In this document: positions 19,386-55,080 of the stretch, piece after piece
Layout of the letters: the number at the start of each line of letters is the position of its first letter
How positions within the stretch are numbered: the first letter of the stretch is position 1
DNA from: Bryoerythrophyllum caledonicum
Taxonomy: Eukaryota > Streptophyta > Bryopsida > Pottiales > Pottiaceae
Length of the DNA stretch: 64,000 nt
Direction: 5' to 3'
Assembly (NCBI GenBank): GCA_963971425.1
Contig: OZ020523.1
Location: forward strand, 12,458,867 to 12,522,866
Translations under genes and position numbers: made by a program
Notes under the pieces: model-generated
What the model was told of the DNA's origin: nothing
Databases searched by the model: none
What the model saw: the letters and a program-made list of their open reading frames with translations, nothing else

Positions 19386-19727
19386 TAAACCAAGCTATGT
19401 GCATATGTAGAAGAGATGAAAAGGTTAAAAGGTTATTTAGTTATAGTACTTAATATTACAATTTTAGCCCAAGTGATTTCAAGATTTTCCAATAAAATGT
19501 AGATTAGTTATGAAATTTTGAAGTGGTTTGCCATGTTTAGTCTATTTGCACCACCAGGTAATCCCATTAATGTTGACAACAAGTAAAGGATTATGTCCAA
19601 AGAAAAATCTTAACTTGCAACTGTGAATAAGTGAATTGGATGAAAATGGGATCGTTTATAGCAGCATATTTCTTGGTAGTTTTCCCATGTTCCCAAGTAA
19701 CTTTCATGGGTAGGACAACCTCATTAA

Positions 19728-19934
19728 CCCCTAAAGGACCAAGTGTCCATTTAAGGGTCAAATTTTTTCACTTTGATTGCAATTATCTTTTAATATATAC
19801 GGTTGGAATTCACAAACAAAACTTAACGAGAATCATTACACATAAGTTTAGAAGAAGATCCTATGGTTACATTCTCAAAAAAAATTATGAAAAATGAAGT
19901 AGATATTCCTCTAAAATGCCTCGGTCCTTTAGGG
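19728..19934. mobile_element. TTAA element family A, short form (207 bp)
   Basis: TTAA flanks (19724-19727, 19935-19938) and ends CCCCTAAAGGACCAAG and CGGTCCTTTAGGGG. The same insertion, more decayed, is at 51586-51772 in the other duplication copy, so it predates the duplication. Confidence 0.85.
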
Positions 19935-20305
19935 GTTAAAGTGGCAATCTGAAGGCGCTACAGTCTTGTCTCGTAGTGTGATGACAAAACAAAGACCAAA
20001 GTGTGCTGTAACCTGTTTCATAGGATGGGTGCAGAGAGACCAGGTGCAGTAACACTGAAACAGTAAACATTCTTCAATGTACAATGTGATGAGTACACTA
20101 AAGTTGGACAAGGACAAGAACATCACAGACTTTCAACAACGGAAAAGGAACACGTTAGGAATTGGAATACAGTGTATAATCTTAAAGGGTAAAACGTCCA
20201 CACTTCCATCAGTTCAGCTAGTCGAGCTCTTCAAGTAGAGTCAAGCTGCTAGAACACACTAGTCTTATTCTACAATCGTACGACACACTTATTCTGACTA
20301 TAGTC

Positions 20306-20451
20306 TATGAGAGGCAGAAACTAGAGCACCTTGTTCGCAGAAAATGCATACTCCTGTGTGGATTACCTTTTAGCCAAGGTCAGCCAGGGAAGGTTGGGAT
20401 CCATGTTATACTGGATGGAATGTTTGTAGTAGCCAACCTCACGTCTGAAAA
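20306..20451. other. Strongly conserved block of the duplication
   Basis: This block differs from its partner (52345-52490) at only two positions, 20342 and 20360, while flanks are far more diverged. On the minus strand its right edge coincides with a consensus acceptor (TTTTCAG, exon from 20444). The following frame starts REVGYYKHSIQYNM and runs to a donor or stop at 20366. Both differences lie outside that 78-bp stretch. The plus strand is also open here (starting YERQKLEHLVRR). I cannot decide which strand is used. Confidence 0.4.
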
Positions 20452-20527
20452 CTATATGACCCGATTGATTGTGAATAACAAAAAAACGGGCTCATACCTG
20501 GCAGCTGGGTTCCAGAATCTCATAGCT

Positions 20528-21166
20528 CTAGATCTTGGGAAATAAGTCCAACTTGGGTGGAGAATCCGCTAGAAAACCATCAACAATGTGGACAAGAAGA
20601 CGCCCTCCACCTCCCCCTCCGGCACCGGCGCCAGCGCCTCCGCCAACTCCAGCACCTCCACCTCCAGCACCTCCACCCCCAGCCCCTCCACCACCAGCGC
20701 CTCCACCTCCAGCGCCTCCACCTGCAGCACCTCCACCTCCCGCACCTCCTCCTCCGGCACCAGCGCCAGCGCCTCCGCGACCTCCAGCACCGACACCTCC
20801 CCCACCTCCACCTCCAGCACCTCCACATCCCGCACCTCCACCTCTGGCACCTCCCCCTCCAGCACCTCCTCCTCCGGCACCAGCGCCAGCGCCTCCGCGA
20901 CCTCCAGCACCGACACCTCCCGCACCTCGACGTCCACCTCCGGCACCTCGAGCTCCACCTCCAGCACCTCGAGCACCTTCACGCAAGCCGCCTCCACCTG
21001 GAGCGCCTCGGCCTCTCGTACCTCCATCTCCGGCACCGGCACCTCCAGTGCCTCCGCCTCCACTCCCACTCCCACCCCGGCCACCTGGACCACCTCCGCC
21101 CTGACGCGTTGGGGGGTCATTGTCACGTCCACCAACACCGCCACCCTGAGGGTTTAAGTTTGCCAT
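20528..21166 (-). CDS. Glycine-rich protein, long form (213 aa)
   Basis: I start at the ATG in GCCCATGGCAAACTT because the other duplication copy keeps this start and the residues after it (MANLNPQ here, MADLNPQ there). The centre is a long low-complexity Gly/Ala array (GGGGAGGGGA type) encoded by a minisatellite of CACCTCCAGCAC units. The C-terminus (FLADSPPKLDLFPKI, then stop) is identical in both copies at protein level although the DNA differs by silent change, which supports real coding. No signal peptide is visible. Glycine-rich proteins of plants act in walls or bind RNA, but nothing here decides. The Pro-rich frames on the opposite strand are shadows. Confidence 0.6.
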   Translation of the reverse strand: MANLNPQGGGVGGRDNDPPTRQGGGGPGGRGGSGSGGGGTGGAGAGDGGTRGRGAPGGGGLREGARGAGGGARGAGGGRRGAGGVGAGGRGGAGAGAGGGGAGGGGARGGGAGCGGAGGGGGGGVGAGGRGGAGAGAGGGGAGGGGAAGGGAGGGGAGGGGAGGGGAGGGGAGVGGGAGAGAGGGGGGRLLVHIVDGFLADSPPKLDLFPKI

Positions 21167-21226
21167 GGGCGATCGCCACTTACTAGCGCTTTTCCTGTCA
21201 CAACGGAACACTTTGGCTCGTCAGAT

Positions 21227-22184
21227 ATGAAACTCATGGCCGCAAATTTGAAAACGCGTGAGCTGGCCAACATCACTCTTCATGAGATGCAGACACTCTT
21301 ATATGCTGCAACTGTACAAGAAAATCAACACCACTTCCAAGAGATTGTGCTACCAGGACACCCTGGGCACCAGAGTCTCTTTCCAGATGCAAGGCGGTTC
21401 CAAGGGCCCACAGATGCTACATCCTATGATAATTCGGCCGGCGCATCATAGATCACATATTCTTTCATAAACTCGGAAAACAAGTTCGAAACCAAACTGG
21501 AATCAGATCATTCTATTGCGAACATGCAATACACAATTTTGGCGTCCGACGTAGCACATCGCTAGGGACTCAACTTCTCCTTACACCTGACAATGAAACC
21601 AGATCAGCACAAGGTGCAGCACATGTACCTTGGTCGGCGTCGTACGTGCAGAGAGAAGAAGTGTATCTGCGCCTTGATGTCGAGGTGGGGAAAGAGAGCA
21701 AAGACTGCCAAGTTTCTAATGCGAGAAGTTTTTATCCAGTGTTGGGAATGCCAAGATTGTACGCAGTGAAAGACTTCTATCGGAAAATGGTTTCTTCTCG
21801 GCATGATGGCAACAGCCCGCGCGTTATCGGACCGAACATTTCCCAGCGACGACATGTCACCGGCCGCTATACTGCTGCAGGTCCCCTCTTTTCCCTTCCA
21901 CCCTCCTTCCTATTCCGACTTTCCAGTTGAGATTGATGTATATTATTTCTATTTCCCTTCTTATCATTGGAGCTCTGGAACCCGACAACAAGAACGAGTC
22001 AACGACGTTCTTCACTGGTATCGGTCCGACAACTTGAAGGGCAAAATTTCCAGTCCAAATGGCGTTTTTCCTTGTGGCCGATCATTTTTTCCGTGACCAT
22101 GGAAGTGAGCTGGTGAAGTGTTTGACAAACTGCTTTCCTTGACAAATTTTTTAGCCACTTGCTTTATTGCAGATTTCAGGTAAT
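21227..22184. other. Non-genic part of the duplication
   Basis: Upstream of the glycine-rich gene on the minus strand. Short frames here are not conserved in the other copy (stops and shifts appear at 53620-53830), so I call no gene. The segment probably holds the promoter and 5' flank of the glycine-rich gene. Confidence 0.5.
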
Positions 22185-22201
22185 TGTACTTGGCAACTTT
22201 T

Positions 22202-22337
22202 TTTTTTTTTTTTTTTTTTGGACACAAGCAAAGAGAACCTTTACTGCAAAGGGACGGGGGAGAAAAACGAAAGGCCCAGGGCAAACCCGGCCAGGTCCGG
22301 CGAGGCAGAACTACCAGTCTACCACCCAGGCCAAGCC
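22202..22337 (-). mobile_element. LINE 3'-end insertion (136 bp)
   Basis: Starts with a T run and the LINE tail signature on the minus strand (GCAGTAAAGG, CTTTGCTTGTGTCC, then A-tail). It is flanked by a 17-bp target duplication, TGTACTTGGCAAC plus Ts, at 22185-22201 and 22338-22354. The other duplication copy has an empty site at about 55000. It shares its tail with 30800-31585 and 58319-59030. Confidence 0.85.
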
Positions 22338-22605
22338 TGTACTTGGCAACTTTTCCTACCTCTGAGAGCACCTCCACCGGGGACGCGCCATCCCGGCGAA
22401 GACTGCCCTGGGTTTTGGCCCTGAACCTTGCTCCGCGGTCGGGCTGCAGGGCGCCTGGCGCAGCGCCAGCCGGGAGCAAGGTTCTGTGGCCTGGAAACCT
22501 GTGACTCAAAATAAAAACCCACTGTAGGTCCCGCCGCAAACAGCCTGGCGCAGCCCAAGGCCGCAGGCCGTAGACAGTCTGACTGTCGCGTTTTGCGTTT
22601 TGCGT

Positions 22606-22606
<1 letters not shown>

Positions 22607-22681
<75 letters not shown>
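22607..22681. repeat. 75-nt T homopolymer
   Basis: An uninterrupted run of T preceded by GCGTTTTGCGTTTTGCGTG. Possibly the tail of a minus-strand retroelement, but no LINE tail signature follows it and no flanking duplication is visible. Frames through it (poly-Lys) are artefacts. Confidence 0.9.
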
Positions 22682-22989
22682 CCGGCTTGCTCTCTCCCCA
22701 GTACACTAAAAAAACCCTGTTCTTTATTTTAATTTTTTTATTGATGTGCAAAGAAAAAATTCATAGTTTTTGAAATATGAAGCACCTAATTGCATGTGTC
22801 TTCATCCACATGAAAAATGTAATACGTTGTTTTAGTTTGCGCTATCACATACTATTATGAGAAATTAGATACAAATATTACCAACACGTATTTTAAAACT
22901 TTGTGAATAAAATTGAAGTACCATCTCTAATATTCATTGACCAATTTTATTGTTTCAAATGTGAACTCATAAAGTTCTTTGAAAATTTA

Positions 22990-23830
22990 TCACCCAAACT
23001 CACTTAAAACTCCCATCTAATGCATTAAACTTGAAATACAAACAATTACAGTTTGTAAGATCTTGTACTAGGATTGTACAAGTGTATGCGCCAAAAAATT
23101 TGTTCAATTTCACTAAATAGATTCAATGATATTAGGGTTTGAAGTAAGACATACTCTCTTTTTGAGGTAATACTAAACACCTTCAACAAACTTTGATTAC
23201 CTCCTATAGCAAAGTTTTGCATATAAATTATAATTTTAAGTTTAAAAAGATCATGTTAGGTACATGTGCACCAAATGTTAAAAGTAGAAGAAGGGTAGAT
23301 GATGTCCTTAAGAATCTTGCATTGCAACTATATGAAATTAAATTAACAATAAACTAACAAGTTTTGAATGTAACATATCCTTCTCATATTTTTGAAATAT
23401 AAACTCCGTATGATAGATGCAAAGATTTCTATTCCCTTTCCAAGAGGAATTTCTCATTTTTGAAAATAGACATAAACTTGAATATCTATTGAACTAGGAA
23501 TAAATTATAGATTTGCTACACTATTTTTATATACCAGATAAAATCGCTGCACTATTTGTATATGTTATTGAAAATTGTTTGTAACTTTGGCCCATTAGTT
23601 GGATTTCCAGAAAAAAAACGTCAACGGAAAGCTATAAGAAAATTGTCCATCCAATTAAAATGATCAGACATACATGCTAGAATTAGAGATTGAGGAACTC
23701 GATTAAAATTGAAATTGTCTCCTAAGGAACTAATGTCATGTACGAGTAAAACTCTATGAAGCCAAGACCATTCCATGAAAAATTCAATTCCAACAACACA
23801 TACAAAATGTGTATCATGTACCATATGCTA
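22990..23830. mobile_element. Decayed TTAA element family A fragment
   Basis: The interior matches 54070-54700 (ACTCTCTTTTTGAGGT, CACCTTCAACAAACTT, GTTAGGYACATGTGCACCAAA). The ends are eroded. It lies within the Harbinger element, left of the transposase gene. Confidence 0.6.
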
Positions 23831-23976
23831 CAAGCAATATCAACTATAATAGTTTTTTCTAAATAAACTATAAGTATATTGGTAGAAAGATATAAAGAAT
23901 TCCCTGCAACAACACCCCATACCTAAGTCAAAATTTGACAAACACTTATGTTGTAATTTACATAGTTGAGAATTGA

Positions 23977-25359
23977 TCACATGTTGCCCTTGAACGTCCA
24001 AAGGTGCTCGATTAGGTCATCACGAACGTGGTAATGCTTGATTTGATCTTGAATGTTGACCACCTCTTTTGCAAACCGCTCAAAAGATAAGGGTTTATCG
24101 TGGTCTTCATGTTCTCCATGTTCAATGAAAGCGCTTGTGGATTGTAAGAGGTACTCTTGGTTCAACTCTGATTCAGGTTCTTCATCCTCAATAATCATGT
24201 TGTGTAGAATTACACAACATGTCCATATAGTCTTCATAGTAGCCTTGTCCCACAATCGTGATGGATTTTTAACGATTCCCCACCGTGCCTGTAATACTCC
24301 AAAGGCTCGTTCGACATCCTTACGTGCGCCTTCTTGCTTCATTGCATACCACTGCCTCTTCTCCCCTTGGGGATCACTGATTGTTTTTTGAAAGATTGCC
24401 CAATCAGGATATATCCCATCTGCTAGGAGATAGCAAGAGTTGTATTCATGTCCATTGATTTTGAATTTTGCATTCAACCCTTCTCCTCGCACATAATTTG
24501 TCATCAATGGGCTCCTATCAACAACATTGATGTCGTTGTTTGACCCCGGCATTCCAATAAACACATGCCAAAACCAGAGATTCCGAGATGCAATTGCCTC
24601 CATAACTACTGATCTAGTTCCATCTTTGTTTTGGTACTGTCCATGCCAACCAGTTGGACAATTTTTCCAGATCCAGTGTGTGCAATCAATAGAGCCAAAC
24701 ATTCCTGGAAAGCCCCGGAGCTCATTAAACTGCAATTGATGCAATATATCTTCTGCTGTTGGATGCCTCAAATATTCTGGTCCAAAAAACTCAACTATAG
24801 CAGTAGCAAACCTCTTGAAGCATTCCGTGGCAGTTGTCTCAGCAATGCGCACATATTCATCAACAGAATCCGCTGCCATGCCATAACTAAGGATGCGTAA
24901 TGCGGCCGTTATCTTTTGAATGGAAGATAATCCAGGCCGCCTGACAGCATCTTCTTTCTGCAAAAAATATGAGTCATGCTTCACTACTGCATCATGAATT
25001 CTAAAGAACAAGGACTTCCGCATGCGAAAGCGACGCCGAAATATTTCAGAGTTGTATACCGGAGTCTCAGCAAAGTAATCGTTCCATATTTGGTTGTGCC
25101 CTGCCGCAAAATTTCGTTCGATGTTGGTAGATCTCCCTTTTTTTGAACCACCGTGCATTCTGTCAAGGATCTTTCTACGTTCCTCGGCATATCCATTCTG
25201 AAGTCCTTCATGCATCATAGCAACAACAAGAAATTGTTCCTCTTCATCATCAGAGGCTAGTCGATCCTCCCCCCACTTTGAAAATTGCTCCTTTTGAATT
25301 GAATATTGGAAGCACAAAATCCTTGAAGGTGCCCACCATAAAGGATTAGAAATTTCCAT
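23977..25359 (-). CDS. Harbinger DDE nuclease (460 aa)
   Basis: Open over full family length. DDE_Tnp_4-type core with D225 in GSIDCTHW, D314 in LLADGIYPDW and E350 in KDVERAFGVLQARWG. A helix-turn-helix-like region precedes it (about 145-190, SSIQKITAALRILSYG). HNMIIEDE (386-393) is the usual family C-terminal motif. The first 30 residues are not obviously conserved and could come from an unspliced 5' region. In this superfamily the nuclease needs the Myb-like partner encoded next door for nuclear import and end recognition. I see no disabling change. Confidence 0.93.
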   Translation of the reverse strand: MEISNPLWWAPSRILCFQYSIQKEQFSKWGEDRLASDDEEEQFLVVAMMHEGLQNGYAEERRKILDRMHGGSKKGRSTNIERNFAAGHNQIWNDYFAETPVYNSEIFRRRFRMRKSLFFRIHDAVVKHDSYFLQKEDAVRRPGLSSIQKITAALRILSYGMAADSVDEYVRIAETTATECFKRFATAIVEFFGPEYLRHPTAEDILHQLQFNELRGFPGMFGSIDCTHWIWKNCPTGWHGQYQNKDGTRSVVMEAIASRNLWFWHVFIGMPGSNNDINVVDRSPLMTNYVRGEGLNAKFKINGHEYNSCYLLADGIYPDWAIFQKTISDPQGEKRQWYAMKQEGARKDVERAFGVLQARWGIVKNPSRLWDKATMKTIWTCCVILHNMIIEDEEPESELNQEYLLQSTSAFIEHGEHEDHDKPLSFERFAKEVVNIQDQIKHYHVRDDLIEHLWTFKGNM

Positions 25360-26089
25360 GCAAACATAAATACATGGGGGCTTTGTAACCTTCTTTTGCC
25401 CTTCTAATCTTAGAAAATGACACTAACAATAAAAGAGAAAGTTAGGAAACAAAAATTAAAAGTAAAACTTGGTCAACTTAGAAGGAATAATAAGTATTTA
25501 TATTGGATTGATGTCTTTACATGAAATCCATAAATAACATTGATGTGATCAGCATAGTCTAAAATGAAACCCTACATTTCCTAGATAGTTTAACATTGAA
25601 TTTATCTTTTCAGTTAATGGCTCTAGTGCAATGAGTAGAGAATGGAAAAAATACTTCTACTTTTATCAATAGCCGTAGGATCTAAATTATGAATATAAAA
25701 AGATTTGTATTGTGTATAATTTTGGACTCATATTATTAGAAAAATGAATATGAAATAACAAAAATGTCCAGAAGATTTTGGAATGTATATTTTCTGAAAT
25801 CATATTGTATCAAAACAATTGCGACAATCATTACAACATAAATTACAATGGTAGAGGAAACATAGTTTATAATATCACAAATGAAATACATAGAAAAAAG
25901 GAATTTACCACGTAAACCGTACTTGTAAAAACTCTAAAACATTAAGGACTAACTCTATTGGGAAAACTACAAATATGCAATACACGCCATGTAAGAATGG
26001 AATGCAACATATTCTTAAGAACATAACATATCCCAAAAAACCATAAGAAGAGTTCGTACAAAAGTATTTAGATGAAGTCCACCTACCTC

Positions 26090-27153
26090 TTGCTTGATTC
26101 TCCTTCCTCCACATCCGCACACGGAGGAGGCACTGCAGTAGCAATGGGGGAGGCAACACCATGTTCACTTATAGGAGTCTATACAACACGTGAAAATATT
26201 AGAGGCAAAAAAAAATTCAAAATACGTGACATAAGATATCCAGATTGTACACATTGGAGTTGAAGAGAGGGAGATTGCACAAAGTGTACCTGTACATTTG
26301 CACGTGGAGGAGCCACTACAGGTACTATGGCAGAGGAAGTGCCAGCTGGTTGAGTAGGTGGCATCAGCGAAGTTTTCAACTTCTCCAATGCTTGGGCACG
26401 TAGTAGAGTGAAGTACTCTACGGCATCAGGCTTCAAGGTGGTTAAATCTGTGGTGAAGAGTTGCAAATTTACAGCCTCCTTCAAAACCGCAGTCTTCTCT
26501 CTATTTGCAGCCACCATATCAGCAGTGGTCTTCGCGAAATCAATCTCAAGTTTCTTCGTCTTCATATCCACCAAGGCAAGAGCCTTGGATTTCTTCCTTC
26601 CTAGAGGCCGCACTGGAGAAGTAGCACTACTCTGTACAGGAGACTTGGCTTCATCGGGTTGAGACATTGATGTGGATAAAGATTTCCGCTTCCCCGAGGA
26701 TGTTTTAGTACTAGCAGTGTTTTGATTTCTCCACTTTGGGATGTCCCGCAGATACCTCCAACACTCTAAATGACGAAACAATTTACCACCACCATAAAGT
26801 GTTTGGTAAAGTTGTTGGGCCTTCTGGATGTTGTCGTCCTCATTTGTGCCGGATTCATTGAGATTCTCCACCTGTGCATAGAAAGACCCAAACTTTGTGA
26901 CATGTTTGTTGAGATCACCCCACTTGGACTCCAAGCTCCGCGCCGTCCTTGCATAAGCATTCTTGGGCCCATTGCTATCATAGGACTGCAATACTTTTGA
27001 CCAAAAAGCTTCTTTCTTTTGTCCTGTACCCGTCACAGGATTTTGTGAGACATGCACCCACGCACGGCACAATCGTAGGAGATCGTCCTCTTCAAAATTC
27101 ATGCCTCTTGTTACTTTGGCAGCCTCTGAAGGGGACACCTCCACTGAAGCCAT
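26090..27153 (-). CDS. Harbinger Myb-like DNA-binding protein
   Basis: Exon 1 runs 27153-26290 and begins MASVEVSPSEAAKV. A trihelix/Myb-like domain (about residues 18-70) has FEEDDLLRLCRAWVHVSQNP, then FWSKVLQSY and ARSLESKW, followed by RHLECWRYLRDIPKW near 130-145, the usual PIF/Harbinger ORF1 layout. The tail is charged and Lys-rich. After ANVQ there is a consensus donor (CAG/GTACAC) and an acceptor (GTATAG) at 26179, defining a 111-bp intron (26179-26289). Exon 2 (26178 down to about 26090) stays open (TPISEHGVASPIATAV...). The final stop depends on whether the GTAGGT at 26089 is used as a donor. If unspliced, the protein would end at 26179 after 324 residues. Confidence 0.85.
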
Positions 27154-27289
27154 AATCCTAAATCTGGTTTAATAAGCACCAACGATGCAAGGTGAAATTA
27201 GAACTTGAAACAACTACAATATGACTTGTAAACCCACCAATAACAAACAAATCTTTTGGCTAGGATATTCTACTCAAAGTGAGATTTTC

Positions 27290-27800
27290 AATATTAACAC
27301 ATGGTATTATTTCCTTTTAAATATGGTAAAAAATTGTGTTTAGTGGAAAATAGCACACTAACTTCTAAATGCAAAAAGTTCCAAAGTGGGCTTTTGCAAA
27401 TCTCGGGCACATTTTCATGGTTGCAATCCATATTAACATTTCTCAAAATTTTATTTAAAGATGCAAGAAGACAAGAGGTACATAGGGATATTATTGTTTC
27501 TCACTAGACTTCTTGAAAAAAAGGTATGCTATCTTGAAGATAAACTTCTAGAGTGCGGGTACTCCAGGCAAGTCAAAAACCTTTTTATAGGACACTTTGT
27601 CAATTGTGATATTTTCAATACTAGAAAGTGATATGTATTTCCTTTCATTTTGTCATAAATTATCTTTTGTCTTTAGTGAAAAATAGCATTTCAACCCAAG
27701 TCTAACATTTTCACACATTGTCACACATTGTCATGCAAGGTACCAAAAAAATCTTCTTTTAAACCTAAAACTTACAGATCTTCATGTTTTTCAATTTTTC
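27290..27800. mobile_element. Decayed TTAA element family A fragment
   Basis: Matches 32340-32620 (GATGCAAGAAGACAAGAGGT, GTGGGACTTTGC-like words) and the reverse end of longer family A copies (CAACCCAAGTCTAACATTTT, CACATTGTCA). Ends eroded. Confidence 0.6.
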
Positions 27801-27964
27801 TTTTTCCTACCAGAAGATGTGTTGTAAACTGAATTCCTCATTGTTAAATTGAATTCCTACCAAAATTAAGTTGAATTCCTACCAAAAAATTTCTATGTAC
27901 CAAAATAATTCAAATTTACGCTATCTACCATAATAATTCAAATTTATGCTATCTACCAAAATTT

Positions 27965-28140
27965 CACATGTGTATCATGAACATGCCGAGGAGACATGAT
28001 ATGAATTACAAAGCAGTCAATGTAACTCAGTACAGTACAAACATTTGATTTTCACATGTGCATCATGAACATGCTGAGGAGACATGATGTGAATTACAAA
28101 GTAGTGAATGTAACTGAGTACAGTACAAACATTTGAATTT
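27965..28140. repeat. Tandem duplication, about 89 bp
   Basis: Two adjacent copies beginning TTCACATGTGYATCATGAAC and ending AGTACAGTACAAACATTTGA, with a handful of differences. They lie near the right end of the Harbinger element. From 28141 to 28690 the interior is otherwise without a gene. Confidence 0.9.
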
Positions 28141-28918
28141 TCCCTTGCCTAAACTATGAAAACTGCCCACATGCAAGACCCTAACCAAACAATTAAAAAA
28201 ATTAAACTACACAACCTTCAGAAATTTTTTGCATACCAAAGTTAGGTGAACCTGCGTACCGAAGTTAGGTGAGCAGAACTGACAAGGAGTGTTGAAGCGC
28301 AGCAATGCACTATGAGGCCTCAAGGGTCAGAATATAAGCTGAAGAGCTTGAGAGAAATCTTTATGAAGAAGCAAAGTACTAGTAAGTCAATAAATTCAGG
28401 AAAGTCCAAGGGGAAGTAAAGTCAAGCCAGGTACATGCCAAAACGCGTCAGTAAAAGGATTGTCAGCGGCAGCCACTCCTGCAGCCATTGCTACTCCACC
28501 ACGTGCTAGAAATAGATTGGTGGCCCTACCCCGGTGAGATTTTCAGTCGCCCGCCATATTCCCTCCTTTTCCAGGCTTGCTCCCAACTCCCTCCATCCCA
28601 CCTGACCGGTTTGACGGCCCTGACGAGCGCGGTGGAGGAGCACCTTCCCCCGGACCCACCAAACCTGACAGGTCTGCCGGGATGGGGGCCTGCGGTGGAG
28701 GTGCTCTGAGTCAGCCAGGTTTCAAGGCAATGTCACTCATTATCATATATTTTCATGTATGAAGGCCCACATAAACTGGATATTAAATTCTGACATTAAT
28801 GTGCTACATACTAGAAGTTTCTAAGAGACCTGATGGCAACAATGGTTGGAATCGAATTTGCCAAAGCGAAAGTCATAATGATATTACCAAGAAACTGTTC
28901 AGGGATGCGTTATCCAAC

Positions 28919-29198
28919 GGCGCGGACAGGAAACCCCCCAAGCTCGGGGTCACCCGAGGTGGGGCCCGTCTTAATTGCATGGGCTCATTTTTCTGGCCCT
29001 CCCATTTTGGGGGGGTCAGAGGCTTTTTTTGGATTTTTTTAAAACAAAATTGGAGCCTACGGCCCCAATTTAGTCCAGAGATCCACCTTTGGCTAAATTT
29101 AGGGCCCCATCCAAAAACAAAATAGGGGCCAGGTTTTGGCCCCACCACCTCCTCCCACACCTGGCAAGTCTAAGCGTGGGGGGGTTTCCTGTCAAATC
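28919..29198. mobile_element. Small element with GACAGGAAACCCCCC ends
   Basis: Inverted ends around GACAGGAAACCCCCC (28924 and its complement near 29179-29193) enclose 280 bp without genes. A 10-bp near-duplication (GTTATCCAAC at 28909, GTTATTCAAC at 29199) flanks a slightly longer version of the ends. A 9-11 bp duplication would suit a Mutator-like MITE; an 8-bp hAT reading is less good. Confidence 0.6.
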
Positions 29199-29217
29199 GT
29201 TATTCAACTACCAAAAA

Positions 29218-29430
29218 ATAAAACTCTCGTCTCCAAAGGGGACCGGCGTGAATATATTGTTTGTTCATTCTCTTCACTAAGCCAATGGCCATGGGATATA
29301 AGTTAGTGTAATATAACTACTTCTCTCTTTTGAGGGTAAATAATTTTTTACACTAAGTGCCTTGAAGACAAGTGGCATGTCATCCCCCCAATGGCTTTTT
29401 GGGTAGACTATGGTGATAGGCATCATGCTG
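29218..29430. repeat. Dispersed repeat R1, copy 2
   Basis: Partner of 290-560, shorter because of internal loss. No coding content. It continues as unassigned sequence to about 29555. Confidence 0.55.
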
Positions 29431-29556
29431 GCATGGGGACTTGAATTCACAACCACCTCACTGGTGTGCCATGACCCAAACCATCACACTAGGCCAACTA
29501 CAATTGTAATTAAATGTGCCAAAGCAAACGTTGTAGTGTAACTACCCAATTACTTA

Positions 29557-30090
29557 ATCCCTAAAAATCCTTGACAATTCATACCAAACACACTTCATAA
29601 TTGTTGATTCTAGTGCAATGAATAAGGAAGTGAACAAAAACTTTCATTTTTAGTTTAACCATAGGATCTTAATTAAGATTTACTAATTAACATACTTACA
29701 CAATTTCATAAACTACGACTCTACGGATTGTAGATTGTAGTATTTGAAGTGGAGGGACAGTTCATTTTCTTCCTTGCGTTTAGTAGATGAGCAAACTTTG
29801 ATTCCACAGTAGTGTCAAAGTTTTGCACTATACAAGGTCTAAATTCATTACCAAGATGTTAAGCATATATTAGTTCCTTGTAGACAAATTTTAGAGGTAG
29901 AGGAGGGGTGTAGCATATTCAAAATAATAAGAAGGTTTACACCACATATTGTTGTGGAAAAATAAAAAGTCATAAATATGAGGATATCTAAGTTTTAATG
30001 TGGATAAGAAGAAGTCTTTTTGGTACCATGCTCGTCAATGTATGACAATGTGTGTAAATGTTTGAATTTACACACATTGTCATACCCAAA
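29557..30090. mobile_element. TTAA element family A fragment
   Basis: Starts TTAATCCCTAAAAATCC and follows the family A interior (TGCAATGAATAAGGAAG, ACCATAGGATCTTAA, TTTTGCACTATACAAGG). The right end is lost. Confidence 0.65.
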
Positions 30091-30206
30091 ATATCAAGAA
30101 TCGTAAATATAAATTGCAATTCTAGGAATGTGTGTAAGATTTGCACTAGCCCACATCAAGACCTTTGTAATTTAGGGGTTCAATTTAAGTAGTTGGGAGT
30201 CTTTAA

Positions 30207-44469: not shown

Positions 44470-47187
44470 TAAAGTGAAAGAGGACATGAAAGATAAACCA
44501 AGATCAACTTTGCAGTGGAGGTCAAACAACATGGAACCCACTAAGAGCATCATAAACCCATACATTGAAAATAGGCCCTAAATCTCATAAGAAAGAGCTA
44601 ATTAGAGAGCCGATTTAAATCATTGGCTACTTGAAGGTTGTTGCATCCCAACCCCTAGCCTCTAAATTAGCCTCAACTTCACTTTATGCACCTAATTTGT
44701 GTCATGTGGCAACACCTTACCTTTCATGGCACGAAGGTCGCGAAAAATTAAGTATCATTAATGTCAAAAGTGCCATCAATAATGAAGGGCTCTTGAAGGG
44801 CTATCAAATATTGCCAAATGTAGCATATGGGAGATATATGGTGGGTCCTCAATAATGAAGACCTTGTAGGAGCAACTCTACCATGATGCCAACTCGGCCA
44901 TGGAGGGCCGAGGGACGTCTGGAGGTAACGAGGCTCGGAGGGTGGCATGCCGGGAAAACCGGGCAGTGCTACCGGGAGATGCTGGAGCCGACGAAGTGTA
45001 TGTGACCGCATCATGCCGCTCTAATGGCCGTTGGCCACTACCACGTGGTGGGGTCCCTAAAGATAACTTGGGGCCGCATGCCCAAAATTTGTGACTTGCA
45101 ATTACGGGGACGTTCGGTTTGTTATGTCTGTTTCTCAAGATGGCACTGTCATTATTCCTGAGTCATTGCTATATCTTTGATTTGAATATAGGATTGAAAC
45201 AGTTCAAATTGAAGAAGACTCGTTTGATAGAAATTTTGATCTAGTCTAGTCCATTTACCAAGTGAAGGACCGTTGTTCTGTAGAGAGGAGTGCTCTTTGA
45301 GAATTTAGAGGGAATCTAGCTACGACTACGAATAGTTGGCTAGGGAGTTCTGTCGCCTCTTCAATTCTTCCGGCCTTCAAAATCTTCAAATCTTCTGATC
45401 TTCAAGATTCTAGCTGCTCCTCGTTGACCTATCATGTGATGGCTCTAAACAAGTTTAAGGATAAGGGTGGGATAATAAGATCTCAAGGGCTTCGAACGTG
45501 TAAAACGGGATGGCCAGACCACGAGCTGAAACCGTCTAAAAGATGGCTCCTAAATTTCAAACCCACGGTGACTAGCAATTGTGCCTCACCAGTGGGAACG
45601 ACATAATGACCATGTGGGTGATCAACTCCACTTCGCCACAACAATGTTTACGACGCATAATGGAAAACAACTGGCCTCCAGAACCGACTGGAAATAACAA
45701 ATAAAGACAACGAGCCTTCAAAGCTGGCTAGGAATAACAAACCACAAGTTGCAATACACGAATCTTCATATCTTCTTATTTTCAAGTCTTCAAATCTTCA
45801 AGTCTTCAAGACATACAAGAAACTCCCGAAAAATTACTTCTATACTAGCTGAGATCTTCAAACTCACTCCACACATGGCTCAAACCTCCAAATTCTATGA
45901 ATAATAGCTTTTTGGAAAGCCGATGCAACGAACTAATCACCATCTAAATTTTCAAATCATTCCAAACCTTTTTTCAAATGTTATAGACGTTCAAAGTTCT
46001 GAACACCTCTAGATGTTCAGTTCTCCATAACTTCTTTTTCAAAGCTTCAAATCTCATTTGTAATAACTTTCTACAAATCTATAATAATGATACAAAAACC
46101 CTTTTAAGCTCAAATCAAGATGAACAACCCAACAAAAGTTATGGCTTGTCAAAACCTCTGCTCTCTCAATGGATGGCCCCGGGTTTTCACAATTTCAAAC
46201 CTTCATAACTTTTGCAACACAACTCCAATTCCAACTTGCAAAAACAATTTGAAAAGCTCTCAACACAAGAAACAATCTCTCAAAGGTTCAATTCCAAAAT
46301 ACTCCTGCTCAATGAGCTACATCAAATCAAAACTCGGCTTGAAACCCTCAAAAAAACTCCCCCCCCACACACACAAACATCCACTAAGGAAGTTCCATTC
46401 TAACTCCTTCTCCTATCTAAAGTGGAAGTGGAACACATCAGCTGTGGAAGTCTAAAACTCCCACTTAGTTGCCCCTACCAAAAAATTAGTTAAATTGAGA
46501 TTTTTAGTTTAGATAATCGGCAAAGCAATTAGTATTGCATAGAATTAGATTGCATAGCAAATAGTGAAAGTAGGAAATTGCTCAACTAGTTAATTAGTGA
46601 TACAGTAGTGATAAAACCAGGGTCTTAAACCAACCAATTTTAATGCCCGAAAAAATCAAAAGAGAGTGTCTGGGAAAATCCCCGGGACAAAGGTCAAAAT
46701 CACCATTTAGGCCTAAACTAGCTAGCGAAGTTTTCATTAAGTAGATAGACTATTTGTTAGTCTTTCTTTTTAGTTTAATTGTTTGGATTTCCTTTTTAGT
46801 TTATTTGTTTGTTGGAAATTGAAATTCTTGTTTGAAAAAATAGGAATTTAATTTTATATGAATGAGAAAGATAAAAAAAAAAATTATAAAAAAAAAAAAA
46901 AAAAAACTAGATTGATAATCGGGTAGACCCGGATATCAACCGGGTATCGGGCTTCCAAGGAGACCAATAGAGAAGAAGAAGAGACTGCAACCTAAATGAG
47001 GGAGGAGAGAGGAGAAGAGAGGAGAGAGAGGAGGGAGACGAGAGGAGAAGAAAACAAGGGAGAAGAGAGGATAGAGAGGAGGGAGAGAAGAGGAGAAAGG
47101 AAGAGGCTGCGAACGAGGAAGAAGAAACCGCAACTGCGTGAAGGAAGGTTTGAAGGAGAGTTGCAGCCATGTTGATGAAGCCTAGTG
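44470..47187. other. Long non-genic stretch
   Basis: No convincing gene. 45350-45830 is rich in CTTCAAGTCTTCAAATC repeats. 46878-46907 is A-rich. 46985-47120 is a purine-rich GAGAGGAGAGA tract on the plus strand. Short frames here have no family resemblance. Confidence 0.5.
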
Positions 47188-47250
47188 CTTGAAGTTGCAA
47201 ACTAGGGTTTGAAGTTGCAAACTAGGGTTTGGAGTTGCAATCTAGGGTTT
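47188..47250. repeat. 20-bp tandem repeat x3
   Basis: Three copies of TTTGAAGTTGCAAACTAGGG starting at 47188, 47208 and 47228. The junctions create CTAGGGTTT telomere-box words. Confidence 0.95.
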
Positions 47251-47436
47251 GTGAAATATCGTGGCGAAGGGATTTTAGAGACAACGGAGGTGGCGATTAC
47301 TAGGCGTGGAAGGAGTGTGAGGAGGTTGACAACCGCGGCAAGAACATTCAGAGACTAAACTACGATTGCAAGGAGGTTGCAGGTGCAACAAGGAGGTCGC
47401 AAAAATTGTGAAAAAGGTGCTTCTGCCAATTGATGA

Positions 47437-47602
47437 GTTTATCTTGTTTGTAGAATATCCTTGTTTGTGAGTTCGCATCTTTCACTTGTTTATCTTGTTT
47501 TTAGAATATCCTTGTTTGTGAGTTCGCATCTTTCACTTGTTTATCTTGTTTTTAGAATATCCTTGTTTGTGAGTTCGCATCTTTCACTTGTTTATCTTAT
47601 TT
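47437..47602. repeat. 51-bp tandem repeat, 3.3 copies
   Basis: Units start GTTTATCTTGTTTKTAGAAT at 47437, 47488, 47539 and (partial) 47590. They are almost identical, so the expansion is young. Confidence 0.95.
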
Positions 47603-47622
47603 TCCCTTCCCTGGGATGAATT

Positions 47623-49932
47623 CCGGTTGTCTCGCTTCCGGTCTAGAGAAAGTCTCCCGGTAGACTCTACTTAAACCATGTGCATCTTAGAGTCTTGAAT
47701 TCTTGTTACTTGTACGTCTATCCTTTTATTTATTTTCTTCCGTTCTATTGTCCCGGCCTTGTGGCAAGTAGTCTTTGTGTTCTCCCTATTCTTCCCCTTT
47801 TCCTAATCTTGCCTAAAATTTCTGTCATTTTTCCGGTCTCTCCGGTCTCCCGAAAAAACCATCTACAATATCTCTTGTTCTCCTAGCATAAGAGTCATCT
47901 CTTTGGCTTGAGTGGTCATTTGTTATTTTGTTTCATCTAGTTGTGTTTCTAGATATGTGAGATGCCTACATCCACATTAATCCAGAAAAGTGTTCCGAAG
48001 AAAAGTATACCAGTTGCCCGGTATACTCGTGTGTTTTCCGGGCCAGACCGGAAATTGTGATAAGTCCAGTAGGATGATTGGCGAAAGTACAGGCACATCC
48101 CGGAGTTAGTCCATCCCGGACGACATGACTCCACCGGTAACATTGACGCTTTTCAAGATGGATCCGTACAAGTGGGAGGGGACTGAGAAAAAATGATAGT
48201 TGGAGGAAGACCTCATCCGGATGGGCTGCATGGAATTATACGAGAAACCTTGGGTCTTCCAAAAGGGCTATGCAGCTGCAGAGTTGCTAGCTCCCGGTAC
48301 ACCTCGGACAACCTACCAAGCTAATCCTCCGACATAAACCAAAAAATTATGGCGTAATGTGTATTCTTTTGCAGAAGAGGAATGATGAAAGTCCGGGGTC
48401 AACCGAGAGTTGTTGGATAAGCACCTGTCAAGCTCCTACGAAACATCAGAGTGCTACCGCAGTGAAGAGTTTAGGAATAACTGGTTTAAGAGTGTGATTG
48501 AGTTTTTAAACCCAATCTTCTATCCCAACCCACGTAAGAGAATTGCAACGCGGCTAGCCACAACATGTCTCCGATAGCTATGCTTGTTGATCCGATGGAG
48601 ACTTTCAATATACCGGTAGATACTCCCCATCTACTAGTAGATCTCCTTGTTGAGATTTCCAACCTTCCGGTCGATCCTCTTGACAATATACCTGTGGATA
48701 CTCCCAATCTTCCAGTCAATCTTCCCATGGATCTATCGGAAGATAATTCCACTCTTCCGGATAAGTCTTTTGAGTGAGCCTATGGTATAGGTTATTGTGG
48801 ATTTATCATATCTGTTGATAGGATGTTGCGGTAGATTAACGCTAGGGTGAGAGTAGTGATGTCGATGGGGCTCCATTGTGCACCCAATTACTACCACTTG
48901 AGTGAATTCTCCGGCTACCTACTTTTGTTAAGTATGTTTTATCAGTCTCGAACCGATAGTCTTCCAGTTTACCGGTCTAACCCGTAATCCGCCGGTGGCT
49001 AGGCAACCGTCAATTCTAGGATCTAGATGCTGTTTCCCACCTTTGGTGAACCTAGTTTTTGGAGGGTAGCTAGTGGCCTTTGTGTACTTAAAGAGCCTTG
49101 GGCTCTTGGTTTAAGTACTCTTCTCTTTGTTCCTTTGTTTGTGTCTTACCTTCATTGCTTGTGTCTAGAGTTATTGTTGAGTTTGCGTAAGTAGAGAGGT
49201 TGAGTGTTGAATCCTCCTAGAAGGTCTTTGCTAGGATGTGCAAGGTTGTGGCTTGTCGAGTGCTATATGGTTGAATGTAAACTAAGGCTTCCGGAGGGAG
49301 TAGGATGTTCGGACTAGATGGTGGAGTAAGATCCGAGATCTACTTCAAACCCCAGACCGGTTGGACCGGGTAGAGTTGTTTACCGGATGGGATTTGGAAA
49401 GCCCACTGCTATTTATGATAGCATCCCTTAAGCGGCAAGTGTTTGGATTGGTGGAGAGGAGGGGTAACATCCCCCCTCTTGGTACACTAGGAAATATCCC
49501 GGTTAAGCCTGAGTCCGGAGTATTCTGGGCTTTCTACCCTTGCAGTGGATGAGGTCCCTTGATTGCCGTGGAAAGTTGTCTTGCTTACGTGAATTATTTA
49601 GCAGTAGATTGTTGTGATTCTTGTATCTTCTTTGTTTGATTCATTGAGTGAGGTTGTAGTTGGAATCCGGCTTTGCGAGACCAGTTTACCGGGACTATTT
49701 TCCGGTAGATTGTGAAGGCCGGTAAACTAGCTGAAACCTTTTAACTCTTTCATGGTGTAGAGTTAGGTTGTGGAGATTGTGGCCCGTGGACTGTGAGAAC
49801 GGAGGGCATTGACTATCCGGGCACAGTGAAAACTTACTAGAAAACTACTATGACGTTCAACAAAGTTTAAGTTAAACAATTGTGGTTACTTCTTACCGGA
49901 CAATAAGGTACCGGGGAAGCCATTCTTCCGGA
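47623..49932. other. CCGG-dense tract of unknown nature
   Basis: I count about 35 CCGG sites in 2.3 kb, often as TACCGGT, TTCCGG or CCGGTA, in otherwise average-composition DNA. Fragments look coding (about 48128-48540, starting MTPPVTLTLFKMDPYKWEG, with several stops; 48565-48777 encodes repeated VDTP/LPVD motifs), but no frame is long. It could be the body of an old element or a decayed gene. Confidence 0.45.
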
Positions 49933-51224
49933 TGTGCTGAGGTATTGAGTATGAATTGTTGTTAGATATAGGAAGTTGAACACACGATAAAAATTCCTGG
50001 AAACGATATGGTTAGGTGGGGTTGGGTGAGGTTAATTTCGGTTAACTTTGGAAATTACGAATCACTGGACGACGATACTTATTCATGCATGCTCCAAGCT
50101 ATAGCTTCAACGAAGTCATGCGGATTCTAGAGCTTGCAAATATTGCCAAACAAGAGTTAGAAAGACTATAATGTTGTACTTCTTAAAAAGATCTTTGATC
50201 TTAGATTGCTCAGATGTAGAGTTGCACAATTGTAGACGTGGATGTGAATTTAGTTCATGTACCTATTGAGTTTGTTATGATCTGTTAATTGGCATACTTC
50301 ACATGCACTACTATACGCAATGGAGAGTTTTGTTCTAGGTGAATTCAAAGTAGAGACTATCAACCTTTTCTGGAAATCCCTTTGGATTTGTGTAAGTGAT
50401 CTCATTTAATGCCCATGTGAGGACCCTATAATACATGGATGATATCCAAGTAATGCCTAGGTCATACCCGTTCTAAACCTAGGCAATGCCCTTTTAATAC
50501 CTAAGTGATACCGTGCAGTATACCTTGTGCCCAAATCATTGGATATTTGTAAATAATAAATTTGGTTGTGCCTAGACCAAAATATTAAACATGTTGTAGA
50601 AGATTTAAATTTGATCATTCTAAATTTAAAAATATTGGACGTACTTTATTACCAAAGCAAAGAAAGAGAAGAAGGCCCAATAGTGACTAGTCCAAAAAAT
50701 TGTTCCACAAGTGACCACGATTATAGGCTACTTACTTAATTTAGTATTTAAAAAAGAAAAATGTTCAAAATTCAAAGTTTCGCCCAAATTTCCCACAATT
50801 TCACATTAAAAAAATGTGATACTTATTCAGTTTTCAAAGTTTTGTACGCTCACCACTCACTATTCACAAGACAACATCGTTGGAAATTGACACCATACTA
50901 ATTAAACTTTATGAAATTTTTTGGATGTTTTCTTGTAGTAGTTAGCTTGAAGGTCCTACGGTTAAAAATAATATTAAGCTAATCCAATCGGTCTTTCAAC
51001 GTCTCATATTAGAATGGCAATTTTGAGGTGGTTTTGTGAAACATTGTCCCTGTCCTTTCAGGAATATATACAGACTAAAATAGAGCATATTTGATTTCAA
51101 GCTCTTTTCTTTTGTACCTACACTCTCTTTCCCTTTTCTTTTCTTCTTTTGGAAGGAATTTTGTGAAAACTCTGTTACCATGAAAGAGCTTTAAGCTAGT
51201 GGTCTAAAGTGATCTAACCTATTA
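49933..51224. other. Non-genic stretch with old element scraps
   Basis: 50405-50510 is a degenerate CCTAGGTGATACC-type array related to 40798-40880. 50881-51065 is a decayed inverted family A scrap (TTGGAAATTGACACCATA at the left; GTCCTTTCAGG at the right). No gene. Confidence 0.5.
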
Positions 51225-51585
51225 TCACCAAACTAAGCAATGTGCATATTTGGAACAAATGAAAATGATAGGATTTCTTTCCAATCATAGTACTTAATGT
51301 AACACTTTCAACACAAGTAATTTGATAATTTTCCAATGAACTGCAAATAAGTTATGCATTTTCAAAGGAATTTGCCATGTTTAATCCATTTGCACCACTA
51401 GGTAACCCCTATTAATACTAACAAGAAGTAAGGGATCATGACCGATAATAAATCTTAATTTGTAGCTATGAATGAGTGGATGGGGTGAAAGTGGATGAAA
51501 ATGAGATCATTTACAGCCGCATCTTCCATGGTAGTTTTTCCATGTTCTCCAAAGTAACTTCCTACTAGTAAGGCAACCTCATTTA

Positions 51586-51772
51586 CCCTTGAAGTACCAA
51601 AATGTCTATTTGGGGGTCAATTTTTTTCACTTTTACCACAATTATCTTTCAATCAAAATTCACAAAACTTTTACCACATCACCTCATATAAGAAGATCCT
51701 AAGGTTACATTCTCAAAAATATTTTAAAGAATGTAGTAGATATTCCTTTGAAATGTCTTGGTCCTCTCGAGG
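51586..51772. mobile_element. Family A short form, decayed
   Basis: Orthologous position to 19728-19934. The ends are eroded (CCCTTGAAGTACC; GGTCCTCTCGAGG) and the flank is TTTA. Confidence 0.75.
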
Positions 51773-51794
51773 TCAGCGAAGCAATCTAAAGACG

Positions 51795-52020
51795 CTACAC
51801 TAAAATTGAGAATTAGTGTAACCACACTAATTAATTTGTAAATGCTCTAAGTTTTTACTTTAGGTGGAGTTCTTTTACTATGAGCACAACTATTGATACT
51901 ATTCAACGAAGTGAATCACTGTAAACATCCTTGGTAAAAACATTCATCACGAGTTATTAACCTTTTAGATCATTTACTGTGCTAAACACTAAATCTCAAT
52001 TTCAGTGTAGTCGAGTCTTG
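51795..52020. mobile_element. MITE family C, with empty site
   Basis: Inverted ends CTACACTAAAATTGAGA and its near complement TCTCAATTTCAGTGTAG. Copy 1 of the duplication (near 19962) reads GGCGCTACAGTCTTGTC without the element. A short target such as CTACA may be duplicated. Confidence 0.8.
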
Positions 52021-52566
52021 TCTCATAGTGCATAGTATGATGACAAAACAAAGACCAAAGTGTGCTGTTTCATAGGATGGGCACACAGACCAGGAAACAT
52101 TCTTCAATGTACATGATGAGTACACTAAAGTTGGACAAGGACAAGAACATCACGTTTCTTTCGACAACAGAAGAGGAATATTTTACGGAATTCGAATACA
52201 GTGTATAACCTTGAACTTTGAAGGGTAAAACGTCTACACCTCCATCAGACAGTTCAGCTAGTAGAGCTCTTCAAGGAGAAGAAAGCTGCCAGAACACACT
52301 ACATGTATGACACACTTAATCTACTTGCATGACACTTATTCTGACTATGAGAGGCAGAAACTAGAGCACCTTGTTCGCAGAGAATGCATACTCCTGTGTA
52401 GATTACCTTTTAGCCAAGGTCAGCCAGGGAAGGTTGGGATCCATGTTATACTGGATGGAATGTTTGTAGTAGCCAACCTCACGTCTGAAAATTATACGAT
52501 CCGGTTGATTGTGAGTACAAAATTACGCGCTGATACCTGGCGGTTGAGTTACAAAATCTCTTAACT

Positions 52567-52926
52567 CTAGATCTTGGGAAAAAGGTCCAACTTGGGTGGA
52601 GAATCCGCTAGAAAAGCATCAGTAACGTTGACAAGAAGACGCCCTCCATCTCCTCCGGCACCAGCGCCAGCGCCACCTCCAGCACCGACACCTCCGGCAC
52701 CTCGAGCTCCACCTCTAGCACCTCGAGCACCTTCACGCAAACCGCGTCCACCTGGAGTGCCTCTGCCTCTCGCACCTCCACCTCCGGCAGCGGCACCTCC
52801 AGTGCCTCGGTCTCCATTCCCACTCCCACTCCGGGCACCTGGGCAACCTCCGCTCTGACGCGGACGAGGGTCATTGTCACAGCCACTGCCGCCGCCGCCG
52901 CCAACCTGAGGGTTCAAGTCTGCCAT
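52567..52926 (-). CDS. Glycine-rich protein, short form (120 aa)
   Basis: Paralogue of the 20528 gene. Start (MADLNPQVGGGG), the internal GLREGARGA block and the C-terminus (FLADSPPKLDLFPKI) are shared. About 93 residues fewer lie in the Gly-rich centre, where minisatellite copies are missing. Start chosen for agreement between copies (an upstream in-frame ATG adds MAIVP). Keeping both ends while the centre varies is the behaviour expected of a functional gene with a repeat core. Confidence 0.6.
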   Translation of the reverse strand: MADLNPQVGGGGGSGCDNDPRPRQSGGCPGARSGSGNGDRGTGGAAAGGGGARGRGTPGGRGLREGARGARGGARGAGGVGAGGGAGAGAGGDGGRLLVNVTDAFLADSPPKLDLFPKI

Positions 52927-53969
52927 GGGCACGATCGCCACTCACTTGCACTTTTCCTGTCACAACCGAACAGTTTGGCTTGAAACTCATGGCCGCAATA
53001 GTGAAAACGCGTGACCTCACCATTGCTGGCCACCAACACTCTCCATGAGATGTAGACACTCTTATATACTGCAACGGACTCAATATCACTGTCAAGAGAT
53101 AATGCTCCCAGTTCACCCCACCGCTTCTCTCTCAGCGTCTCTTTCTAGATGTAAGGTGGTTTCAAGGCTCCACAGATACTACGTCCTCTGATAATTCGAC
53201 AGGCGCATCATAGATCACACCTTATTTCGTAGAATCGGAAAACAAGTTTACAACCAAACTGGAAATCAGAAAATTCGATGGCGAACAAACAATAACAGTT
53301 TGGCGTCCGACGCAGGAACGTAACTTTCACGGCATTTCACTACTTTGGCGTATGAACAGCGGCAGAAGGCGAACAAAAATGCATAATCTTCGCAAGGACA
53401 AGAGAACAAAGATGCAATTACACAGCAGACTACTAAGTTGGATCAGCAAGCTGGGCAATGCCGATCACTGGATGAAATCACTGGAGAAGCTAAAGAGTAG
53501 GAAAGCAACAGCGGAGAAGAATCAACTGCAGCAAACACCAGCGACTCAACTTCTCCTTACACCTCACTAACCAACCTTCAAACAGATCAGTACGTGGTGT
53601 AGTAGATGTACCTTGGTCGGCGTCGTGCAGAGAAAAGAAATGTGCCTGAGCCTTGATGTCGAGGTGGGGAAAGAGACTCGCAAAGACTTCCAAGTTTCTG
53701 ATGCGAAAAGTTTCGATCAAGATTGGAAGCAGAGATAAGAGTTCTATCGGAGAATGTTTCTTCTCGGCTAATTGCCAATAGCCCGCGCGTTATCGGACCT
53801 AATCATTTCCCAGCGTCGTGTCTCCGCTTTGCTGCTGTAGGTCCCATGTTTTCCCTTCCACCCTCCTTCCTAATCCTACTTTCCAATGGGATTATGAAAT
53901 TACTCCTATCACCTTTTCATCGGTGGAGCTCTGGAATTCGTCGACAAGAACAAGTCAACGACGTTCTTA

Positions 53970-54770
53970 ACCCCTAAAGGACCAAGGCAAATTTTCCTCA
54001 AAAACACTCCAAAACTGCCATTTTCAGCACATTCAACACAAAATAATACAAAATGTTTTTTTTGAAAACATAACCATACGATCTTGTACTAGACTTGTAT
54101 GAAAGTGTGTGGTGAAAATTTTGGTAAGTTTGATTGCACGGATTGAAAGATATTGGCCTTTGAAGTGAGACATAATCTCTTTTTGAGGTCATATTAAACA
54201 CCTTCAACAAACTTCGACCACCTTCTATGGCAATTTTTTGCACTACAAGCTGTGAATTTATTGTGTTAACTTGAAAAGGATCATGTTAGGCACATGTGCA
54301 CCAAATTTTAGAAGTAGAAGAGGTGTAGAAGATGTCCTAAAAAATCTTGCAATGCAACTATGTGCTGAGCATCAACAATACCCTTTATATTTTGCATATA
54401 TCATATCCTTCTCAAATTTTTGAAATTCACAAATCCGTACGGTAGATGCAAAGATCTCAATTTCCTTTCCAAGAGGACACTTTCTTTTTTTTAAATGGAC
54501 AAAAACTCAAATTTCTATTGAATTTAGAAGTTATTAAAGTTTAGTGACAGTATTTGTGATATGTCACACTAAACTGCTGCACTATTTGTATATGTAAGTG
54601 AAAATAAATTGTAACTTTTGAACCGTAAGTCGGAATTCTTCGAAATTTGTGTCTACCCAAAGCTAATCAAAATTTGTCCATACAATAAAAAATCTCAGAA
54701 AATAATTCCTAGAATTGAGAACGTGGTACCTTCAAAATGTCCCCCGAGGGGACATTGGTCCTTTAGGGGT
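53970..54770. mobile_element. TTAA element family A (801 bp), with empty site
   Basis: TTAA flanks at 53966-53969 and 54771-54774; ends CCCCTAAAGGACCAAGG and CATTGGTCCTTTAGGGG. The other duplication copy reads GTTCTTCACTGG at the same point (about 22010), an empty site, so this insertion is younger than the duplication. The interior is a variant related to 22990-23830. Confidence 0.92.
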
Positions 54771-55080
54771 TAACTGGAAACGGTCCGACAGCTGAAGGGC
54801 AAAATTTCCAGTCCACATGGCGCTTTTCATGCTCGAAGGAAATGCTCCTCCTTCCATAGATCTGCTTTCAATTATACATGTGAATCTACTACAAGTTGGT
54901 TTAATATCCTTTCTATCATGGGCTTGAAAGTGAGGTGAAGTGCTTGACAAATTGTTTTCCTTGAAAAAAATTCTACCTGTTGCCAATTTCAGGTAAGCAT
55001 ACTTGGCAACATTTCCTATCACTAAGTCCGCCAGGTTTCAAGGCTATGTCACTCATTATCAAACGTTTTCCATGTTGTTG

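What the first reader, a model, noticed from the sequence alone, without database searches (positions are those of the whole stretch)
19390..55080. One duplicated segment gives paired filled and empty transposon sites
The segments 19390-22365 (+28707-28765) and 51225-55080 align co-linearly, and the main gaps are element insertions. A 6341-bp Harbinger and a LINE tail are only in copy 1; an 801-bp TTAA element and a 226-bp MITE are only in copy 2; a short family A element is in both. This orders the events: short family A, then duplication, then the four private insertions. Target sequences are read directly (TAA/TGA, TTAA).
Basis: seen in the sequence. Interest (0 to 1): 0.7.

Follow-up and report, generated by a model that had tools for sequence, protein, structure and literature searches.

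The report
Dated transposon insertions in nested duplications
A stretch of plant DNA was copied twice, first as a roughly 3-kb piece and later inside a 70-100-kb block, and comparing the copies shows which jumping genes arrived before or after each copying; this is ordinary genome evolution that happens to be unusually easy to read here.

Summary

Two further copies (A, B) lie just upstream, and A-B versus C-D belong to a later tandem duplication of a 70-100-kb block (33 co-linear pieces, 4.9% different). This re-times the events. The MITE is in B and D, so it predates the block duplication and is not private to copy 2. The TTAA element is in D; B has the empty site, so it came later. Harbinger and LINE are in C only, but A has lost that part, so their date against the block stays open. 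"Family A" is itself a short TTAA element, older than both duplications.

Harbinger, LINE tail, TTAA elements and MITE are of known kinds. The host is a land plant with many piggyBac-type transposases (120 matches) and a very recent Tc1-like burst (111 of 118 scored places 98-100% identical), one copy lying beside C. Modest interest.

The parts
19384..28783 (+). Copy C of the duplicated segment (X lineage), interrupted by LINE tail and Harbinger
   Evidence: block partner A at w -69612..-67741 (outside the window, truncated)
51225..55101 (+). Copy D of the duplicated segment (Y lineage)
   Evidence: block partner B at w -40594..-37043 (outside the window)
19724..19939 (.). Family A: short TTAA element with both TTAA repeats; older than both duplications
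   Evidence: same site in A (whole), D (decayed), B (left half deleted)
51582..51763 (.). Decayed family A copy in D
22185..22354 (-). Truncated LINE-like tail (body 22202-22337) with 17-bp target repeats; in C only among B, C, D
22363..28709 (-). PIF/Harbinger element 22366-28706 (6341 bp) with TGA repeats; transposase 23977-25359 and second ORF 26179-27153
22983..23750 (.). Decayed TTAA element inside the Harbinger
   Evidence: local alignment to D 53989-54773; spacing kept in 5 of 5 other copies with both pieces listed
51796..52009 (.). 210-bp TA-type MITE, in B and D, absent in A and C
53967..54773 (.). 799-bp TTAA element with TTAA repeats, in D; B and C empty
41853..42075 (.). 215-bp TTAA element in block II; block I has the exact empty TTAA
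30800..31585 (-). Block II retroposon-like insertion with T-run and 16-bp target repeat; empty in block I
16424..18090 (-). Tc1-like element beside C, transposase 16752-17777; absent from block I
1334..58236 (+). First part of block II (continues w 80706-100390), co-linear with block I at w -71612..-2871

Best explanation
Two nested duplications with transposon insertions layered between them. (1) A short TTAA element (family A) entered the ancestral segment. (2) The roughly 3-kb segment was duplicated to a place about 29-32 kb away, giving lineages X (now A, C) and Y (now B, D). (3) A TA-type MITE entered Y; at undetermined times after step 2 a truncated LINE and a 6.3-kb PIF/Harbinger entered X. 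(4) A block carrying X and Y was tandemly duplicated, giving A-B and C-D. (5) Later the 799-bp TTAA element entered D, two roughly 400-bp TA elements entered B, B lost 281 bp, A lost its right part, and a Tc1-like element and others entered block II. Each element left its usual target repeat, and the paralogous copy serves as the empty site. Shown: the four copies, the block chain, the target repeats, the empty sites and which copy carries what. Inferred: insertion rather than precise loss, the mechanism of the block duplication (for example unequal exchange), and that A's truncation is a deletion.
For: Four copies only, A paired with C and B with D; 33 co-linear pieces over both blocks, 35884 aligned columns, 1757 differences; C/D 17.3% different, so the segment duplication is older; MITE in B and D and not in A or C, with TA on both sides in 7 of 7 loci read, two of them B and D themselves; TTAA element in D with B and C empty; of 17 block gaps with one side near zero, 8 show clear target repeats or element ends.
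Against: B and D differ less in the segment (75 of 2758) than in all flanking pieces between 40600 and 58236 (697 of 12429; P 3e-11), and a 150-bp stretch is nearly the same in all four copies; conversion or constraint therefore disturbs the clock. The B site reads TTTA and C TTCA where D has TTAA. Eight of the 17 gaps had no clear ends and one is a deletion in B. The second part of block II lies beyond an assembly gap (w 76986-77185).
Confidence: 0.9

Rival explanations
1. One duplication only, followed by four private insertions.
For: It fits C and D taken alone.
Against: A and B exist and B carries the MITE.
Confidence: 0.03
2. Blocks I and II are two haplotypes of one locus, wrongly placed in tandem by the assembler.
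For: 4-5% divergence with many insertion differences is what divergent alleles can show, and the blocks are adjacent and in the same direction.
Against: A, B, C and D and the block junction (w -2871..1334) lie on one stretch without N; the only N run in the 224 kb is at w 76986-77185. A stretch without N does not by itself prove the join. C and D remain a true duplication in either case.
Confidence: 0.06
3. The segment is itself a mobile element or a captured gene fragment that moved.
For: X and Y lie about 30 kb apart and the left edge is at the same place in all four copies.
Against: The inner 1508 bp matched only these four copies plus two 54-bp fragments beside A and C (only 6 candidates were scored). 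I saw no terminal repeats or target repeat at the edges.
Confidence: 0.04

Closest known systems
Tandem segmental duplication with paralogous empty sites (recalled as a general practice)
   Same: Co-linear paralogous blocks in which one copy is the pre-insertion site of the other
   Different: Two nested duplications here, so insertions fall into more than two time layers
PIF/Harbinger DNA transposon
   Same: PF04827 transposase, second ORF with NAM-associated and weak Myb/SANT match, 3-bp target repeat, short inverted ends
   Different: Target repeat reads TGA where D reads TAA; carries a decayed TTAA element inside
piggyBac-type TTAA elements
   Same: TTAA repeats, inverted ends CCCCTAAAGGACC, piggyBac transposases (PF13843) in the same genome
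   Different: No copy seen here joins these ends to a transposase
Tc1-like elements PpTc1/PpTc2 of the moss Physcomitrella (PMC4054914, abstract and passages)
   Same: TA repeat, transposase of about 340 aa with DD34E, recent amplification with intact copies (paper: 1584 and 1709 bp, 338-aa ORFs)
   Different: 1667 bp and 341 aa here; identity to PpTc1/2 was not measured

Membership tests
Segmental duplication | Co-linear homology beyond chance outside the elements | tested here: met
   (1076 bits against at most 26.5 in 20 shuffles for C/D); for the blocks
Segmental duplication | Both copies present in one haploid genome | not testable with these tools
   no reads; A-D lie on one N-free stretch
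PIF/Harbinger | DDE transposase of the Plant_tran/DDE_4 kind | tested here: met
   PF04827 E 1.7e-86, PF13359 E 2.8e-12
PIF/Harbinger | Second, Myb/SANT-like protein | tested here: inconclusive
   PF14303 over its cut-off; PF13873 19.6 bits against a cut-off of 21.7
PIF/Harbinger | 3-bp target repeat and inverted ends | tested here: met
   TGA on both sides, 14-bp ends; empty site TAA in D
piggyBac | TTAA target repeats and inverted ends | tested here: met
piggyBac | Mobilised by a PF13843 transposase with the same ends | tested here: inconclusive
   120 PF13843 matches in the genome, but the one locus held (L055) shows no matching pair of ends
Tc1-like (DD34E) | HTH_Tnp_Tc3_2 and DDE_3 domains | tested here: met
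   best solved relative is Sleeping Beauty
Tc1-like (DD34E) | 34 residues between second D and E | tested here: met
   counted by hand in the translation, catalytic residues placed by the alignment
Tc1-like (DD34E) | TA target repeat and inverted ends | tested here: met
   TA on both sides, 28-bp ends with 2 mismatches
Stowaway-type / Tc1-mariner MITE (210-bp element) | TA target repeat and inverted ends | tested here: met
   7 of 7 loci read
Stowaway-type / Tc1-mariner MITE (210-bp element) | Ends shared with an autonomous element | not tested
   none sought
LINE | A/T run at the 3' end, long variable target repeat | tested here: met
   17-bp repeat, T-run
LINE | Tail belongs to an element with reverse transcriptase | not tested
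   related tails lie in the region but no full element was aligned; a SINE is not excluded

The most novel reading that the evidence does not exclude
A seed-free land plant carries a native, greatly expanded piggyBac-type system (over a hundred transposase matches and thousands of TTAA elements) together with a Tc1-like burst that may still be under way, and this locus is a layered record of their succession, with TTAA elements inserting before the first duplication, inside an ancestral Harbinger, and again after the second duplication.
Probability: 0.5. Interest if true: 0.5.

Novelty: new member of a known kind. Interest (0 to 1): 0.3.

Why it matters
Nested paralogous copies give clean pre-insertion sites and relative dates for several transposon families without a second species. 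Here they place TTAA elements on both sides of two duplications and tie a Tc1-like burst to the youngest layer. The method and the kinds of event are familiar, so the value is as a worked example and as a lead on the transposons of this plant.

Tried and rejected
Segment as a protein gene: the 107- and 99-aa frames of C and D have no Pfam match up to E 0.1; the shared 50 residues occur only in the four copies. The few changes there mostly alter amino acids and B has a stop near the end, so protein constraint is not supported. Segment as an RNA gene: in w 18100-22400 five Rfam matches up to E 5, all far below their cut-offs; D was not searched at that setting. Over the whole window one match reached its cut-off, IRES_c-sis at 5022-5184 in GC-rich repeat, which I take as chance. 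Segment as a mobile element: set aside on copy number. A first count of B/D divergence used four flanking pieces that I picked (56 of 2539 against 606 of 9857); with all flanking pieces between 40600 and 58236 it is 75 of 2758 against 697 of 12429, and two flank pieces are as low as the segment (18 of 973 and 5 of 325), so the contrast is weaker than first computed. Tc1-like transposase against plasmids: no match. Literature: rows listed by searches (12-15 rows each out of 19 to 743 papers) held no paper on native piggyBac elements of mosses; that is absence from those listings only. PMC10619864 (passages) has only 'piggybacking'. PMC6890710 (one passage) lists 1230 PiggyBac copies in a fern. 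PMC9033089 (passages) does not hold the word. PMC7466625 (passages) cites the moss Tc1 paper only in its references. One search (15 of 60 rows seen) gave no direct precedent for this dating by title.

Full report
Observation. Copies C (19384-28783) and D (51225-55101) are real and co-linear. Without elements they align over 2497 bases with 432 differences (17.3%; JC 0.197), and 20 pair-shuffles reach at most 26.5 bits against 1076.

Four copies and two duplications. The window is G000:C11:12458867-12522866 of a 437-Mb genome. With 160 kb of flank the segment was found twice more upstream: A at w -69612..-67741 and B at w -40594..-37043 (w = window coordinate, negative means upstream of the window). 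The inner 1508 bp matches only these four copies, plus two 54-bp fragments beside A and C (6 candidates scored). A pairs with C and B with D, and the flanks pair too: 33 co-linear pieces join block I (w -71612..-2871) to block II (w 1334..100390), with 1757 differences in 35884 aligned columns (4.9%), or 4.4% in the 24 of 33 pieces that differ by less than 9%.

Timing of each element. Family A sits at the same site in all four copies: whole in A and C, decayed in D, and with its left half lost in B by a 281-bp deletion. It has TTAA repeats and the CCCCTAAAGGACC ends of the 799-bp element. In the 224 kb, 38 starts and 36 ends of this kind (up to 4 mismatches, no shuffle control) gave 24 pairs within 1.1 kb. 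The MITE is in B and D, not in A or C, with TA on both sides in 7 of 7 loci read, two of which are B and D. The 799-bp element is in D; B and C are empty; A has lost that part. Harbinger and LINE are in C. B and D are empty at the LINE site; at the Harbinger site D is empty and B holds a different 398-bp TA element at the very same TAA. A's match ends at the equivalent of C 21388 and resumes at C 30460 after 363 bp without a relative in the region, so A cannot date Harbinger or LINE.

Other block differences. Of 32 gaps in the chain, 17 have one side near zero. Eight show clear target repeats or ends: 30800-31585 (16 bp), 41857-42071 (TTAA), the D element (TTAA), w -38066 and -37504 (TA, the first imperfect), w -32060 (20 bp with an A-run), w -31803 (TA) and w -7819 (TTA; block II reads GTA). 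One (51366-51646) is a deletion in B, since A, C and D have the sequence. Eight (248, 558, 137, 348, 439, 808, 151 and 123 bp) had no ends that I could call.

Elements. The Harbinger codes a transposase with PF04827 (E 1.7e-86) and a second protein with PF14303 over its cut-off and a Myb/SANT match just below. Among 90 genome matches this transposase copy has no stop, while the next five (88-93% identical) have 2-6 each; some more distant copies also have none. A decayed TTAA element lies inside it. Its distance to the transposase is kept (921-932 bp) in 5 of 5 other copies for which both pieces were listed, so it is part of the Harbinger family. Beside C lies a Tc1-like element (16424-18090) with an open 341-aa transposase. 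Of 118 places scored (4338 first-look candidates), 111, this one included, are 98-100% identical, and 98 of those 111 have no stop. Block I lacks it. Recently amplified Tc1-like elements are known in the moss Physcomitrella (PMC4054914, abstract and passages). The genome has 120 piggyBac transposase matches (some are two pieces of one copy) and 3243 exact copies of TTAACCCCTAAAGGACCAA against 0 for the reversed pattern.

Host. An rbcL with tRNA-Arg(CCG) and an accD-like frame beside it marks a land plant. That this gene order and the transposon mix point to a seed-free plant such as a moss is recalled, not tested.

Against the tidy picture. B and D differ at 75 of 2758 sites in the segment and 697 of 12429 in all flanking pieces between 40600 and 58236 (P 3e-11), though two flank pieces are as low as the segment. 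Over 1034 columns shared by all four copies A and C differ at 42 and B and D at 15. In 150 bp (52346-52495) X and Y differ at only 2-4 places, against 129-132 of 884 elsewhere; that stretch was picked after seeing the alignment. Within-pair change there is not significantly low (P 0.26 and 0.71), which leans to an old gene conversion, but constraint is not excluded. Divergence should therefore not be turned into years here. The same-site hit of Harbinger in C and the TA element in B would happen in about 7% of random draws of five insertions on 151 TA sites, so it is no evidence of a hotspot.

Verdict. The kinds of event and of element are known.

Noticed in passing
16424-18090: Tc1-like (DD34E) element with open 341-aa transposase; 111 of 118 scored genome places are 98-100% identical, a very recent burst in a land plant.
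   Followed up: partly
whole genome; relic at 38420-39025: 120 piggyBac transposase (PF13843) matches and 3243 exact TTAA+end 19-mers in a land plant genome; a 33%-identical transposase relic lies in the window.
   Followed up: partly
52346-52495: Stretch nearly identical in all four copies although they differ about 15% elsewhere; changes do not look like protein constraint; gene conversion or an RNA/DNA-level function.
   Followed up: partly
51225-55101: B and D differ less in the segment than in most of their flanks (75 of 2758 against 697 of 12429), while A and C do not show this.
   Followed up: partly
22363-22365 and B at w -37504: Two unrelated elements entered the same TAA in two paralogous copies; about 7% expected by chance.
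   Followed up: yes
18671-18724: 54-bp antisense fragment 91% identical to D 52109-52162 just upstream of C, and likewise upstream of A.
   Followed up: no
22983-23750: Decayed TTAA element that is a constant part of the Harbinger family.
   Followed up: yes
32596-33783: Retrotransposon integrase piece (PF17921, PF00665); described only.
   Followed up: no
w 76986-77185 (downstream of the window): Run of 200 N, an assembly gap inside block II.
   Followed up: no
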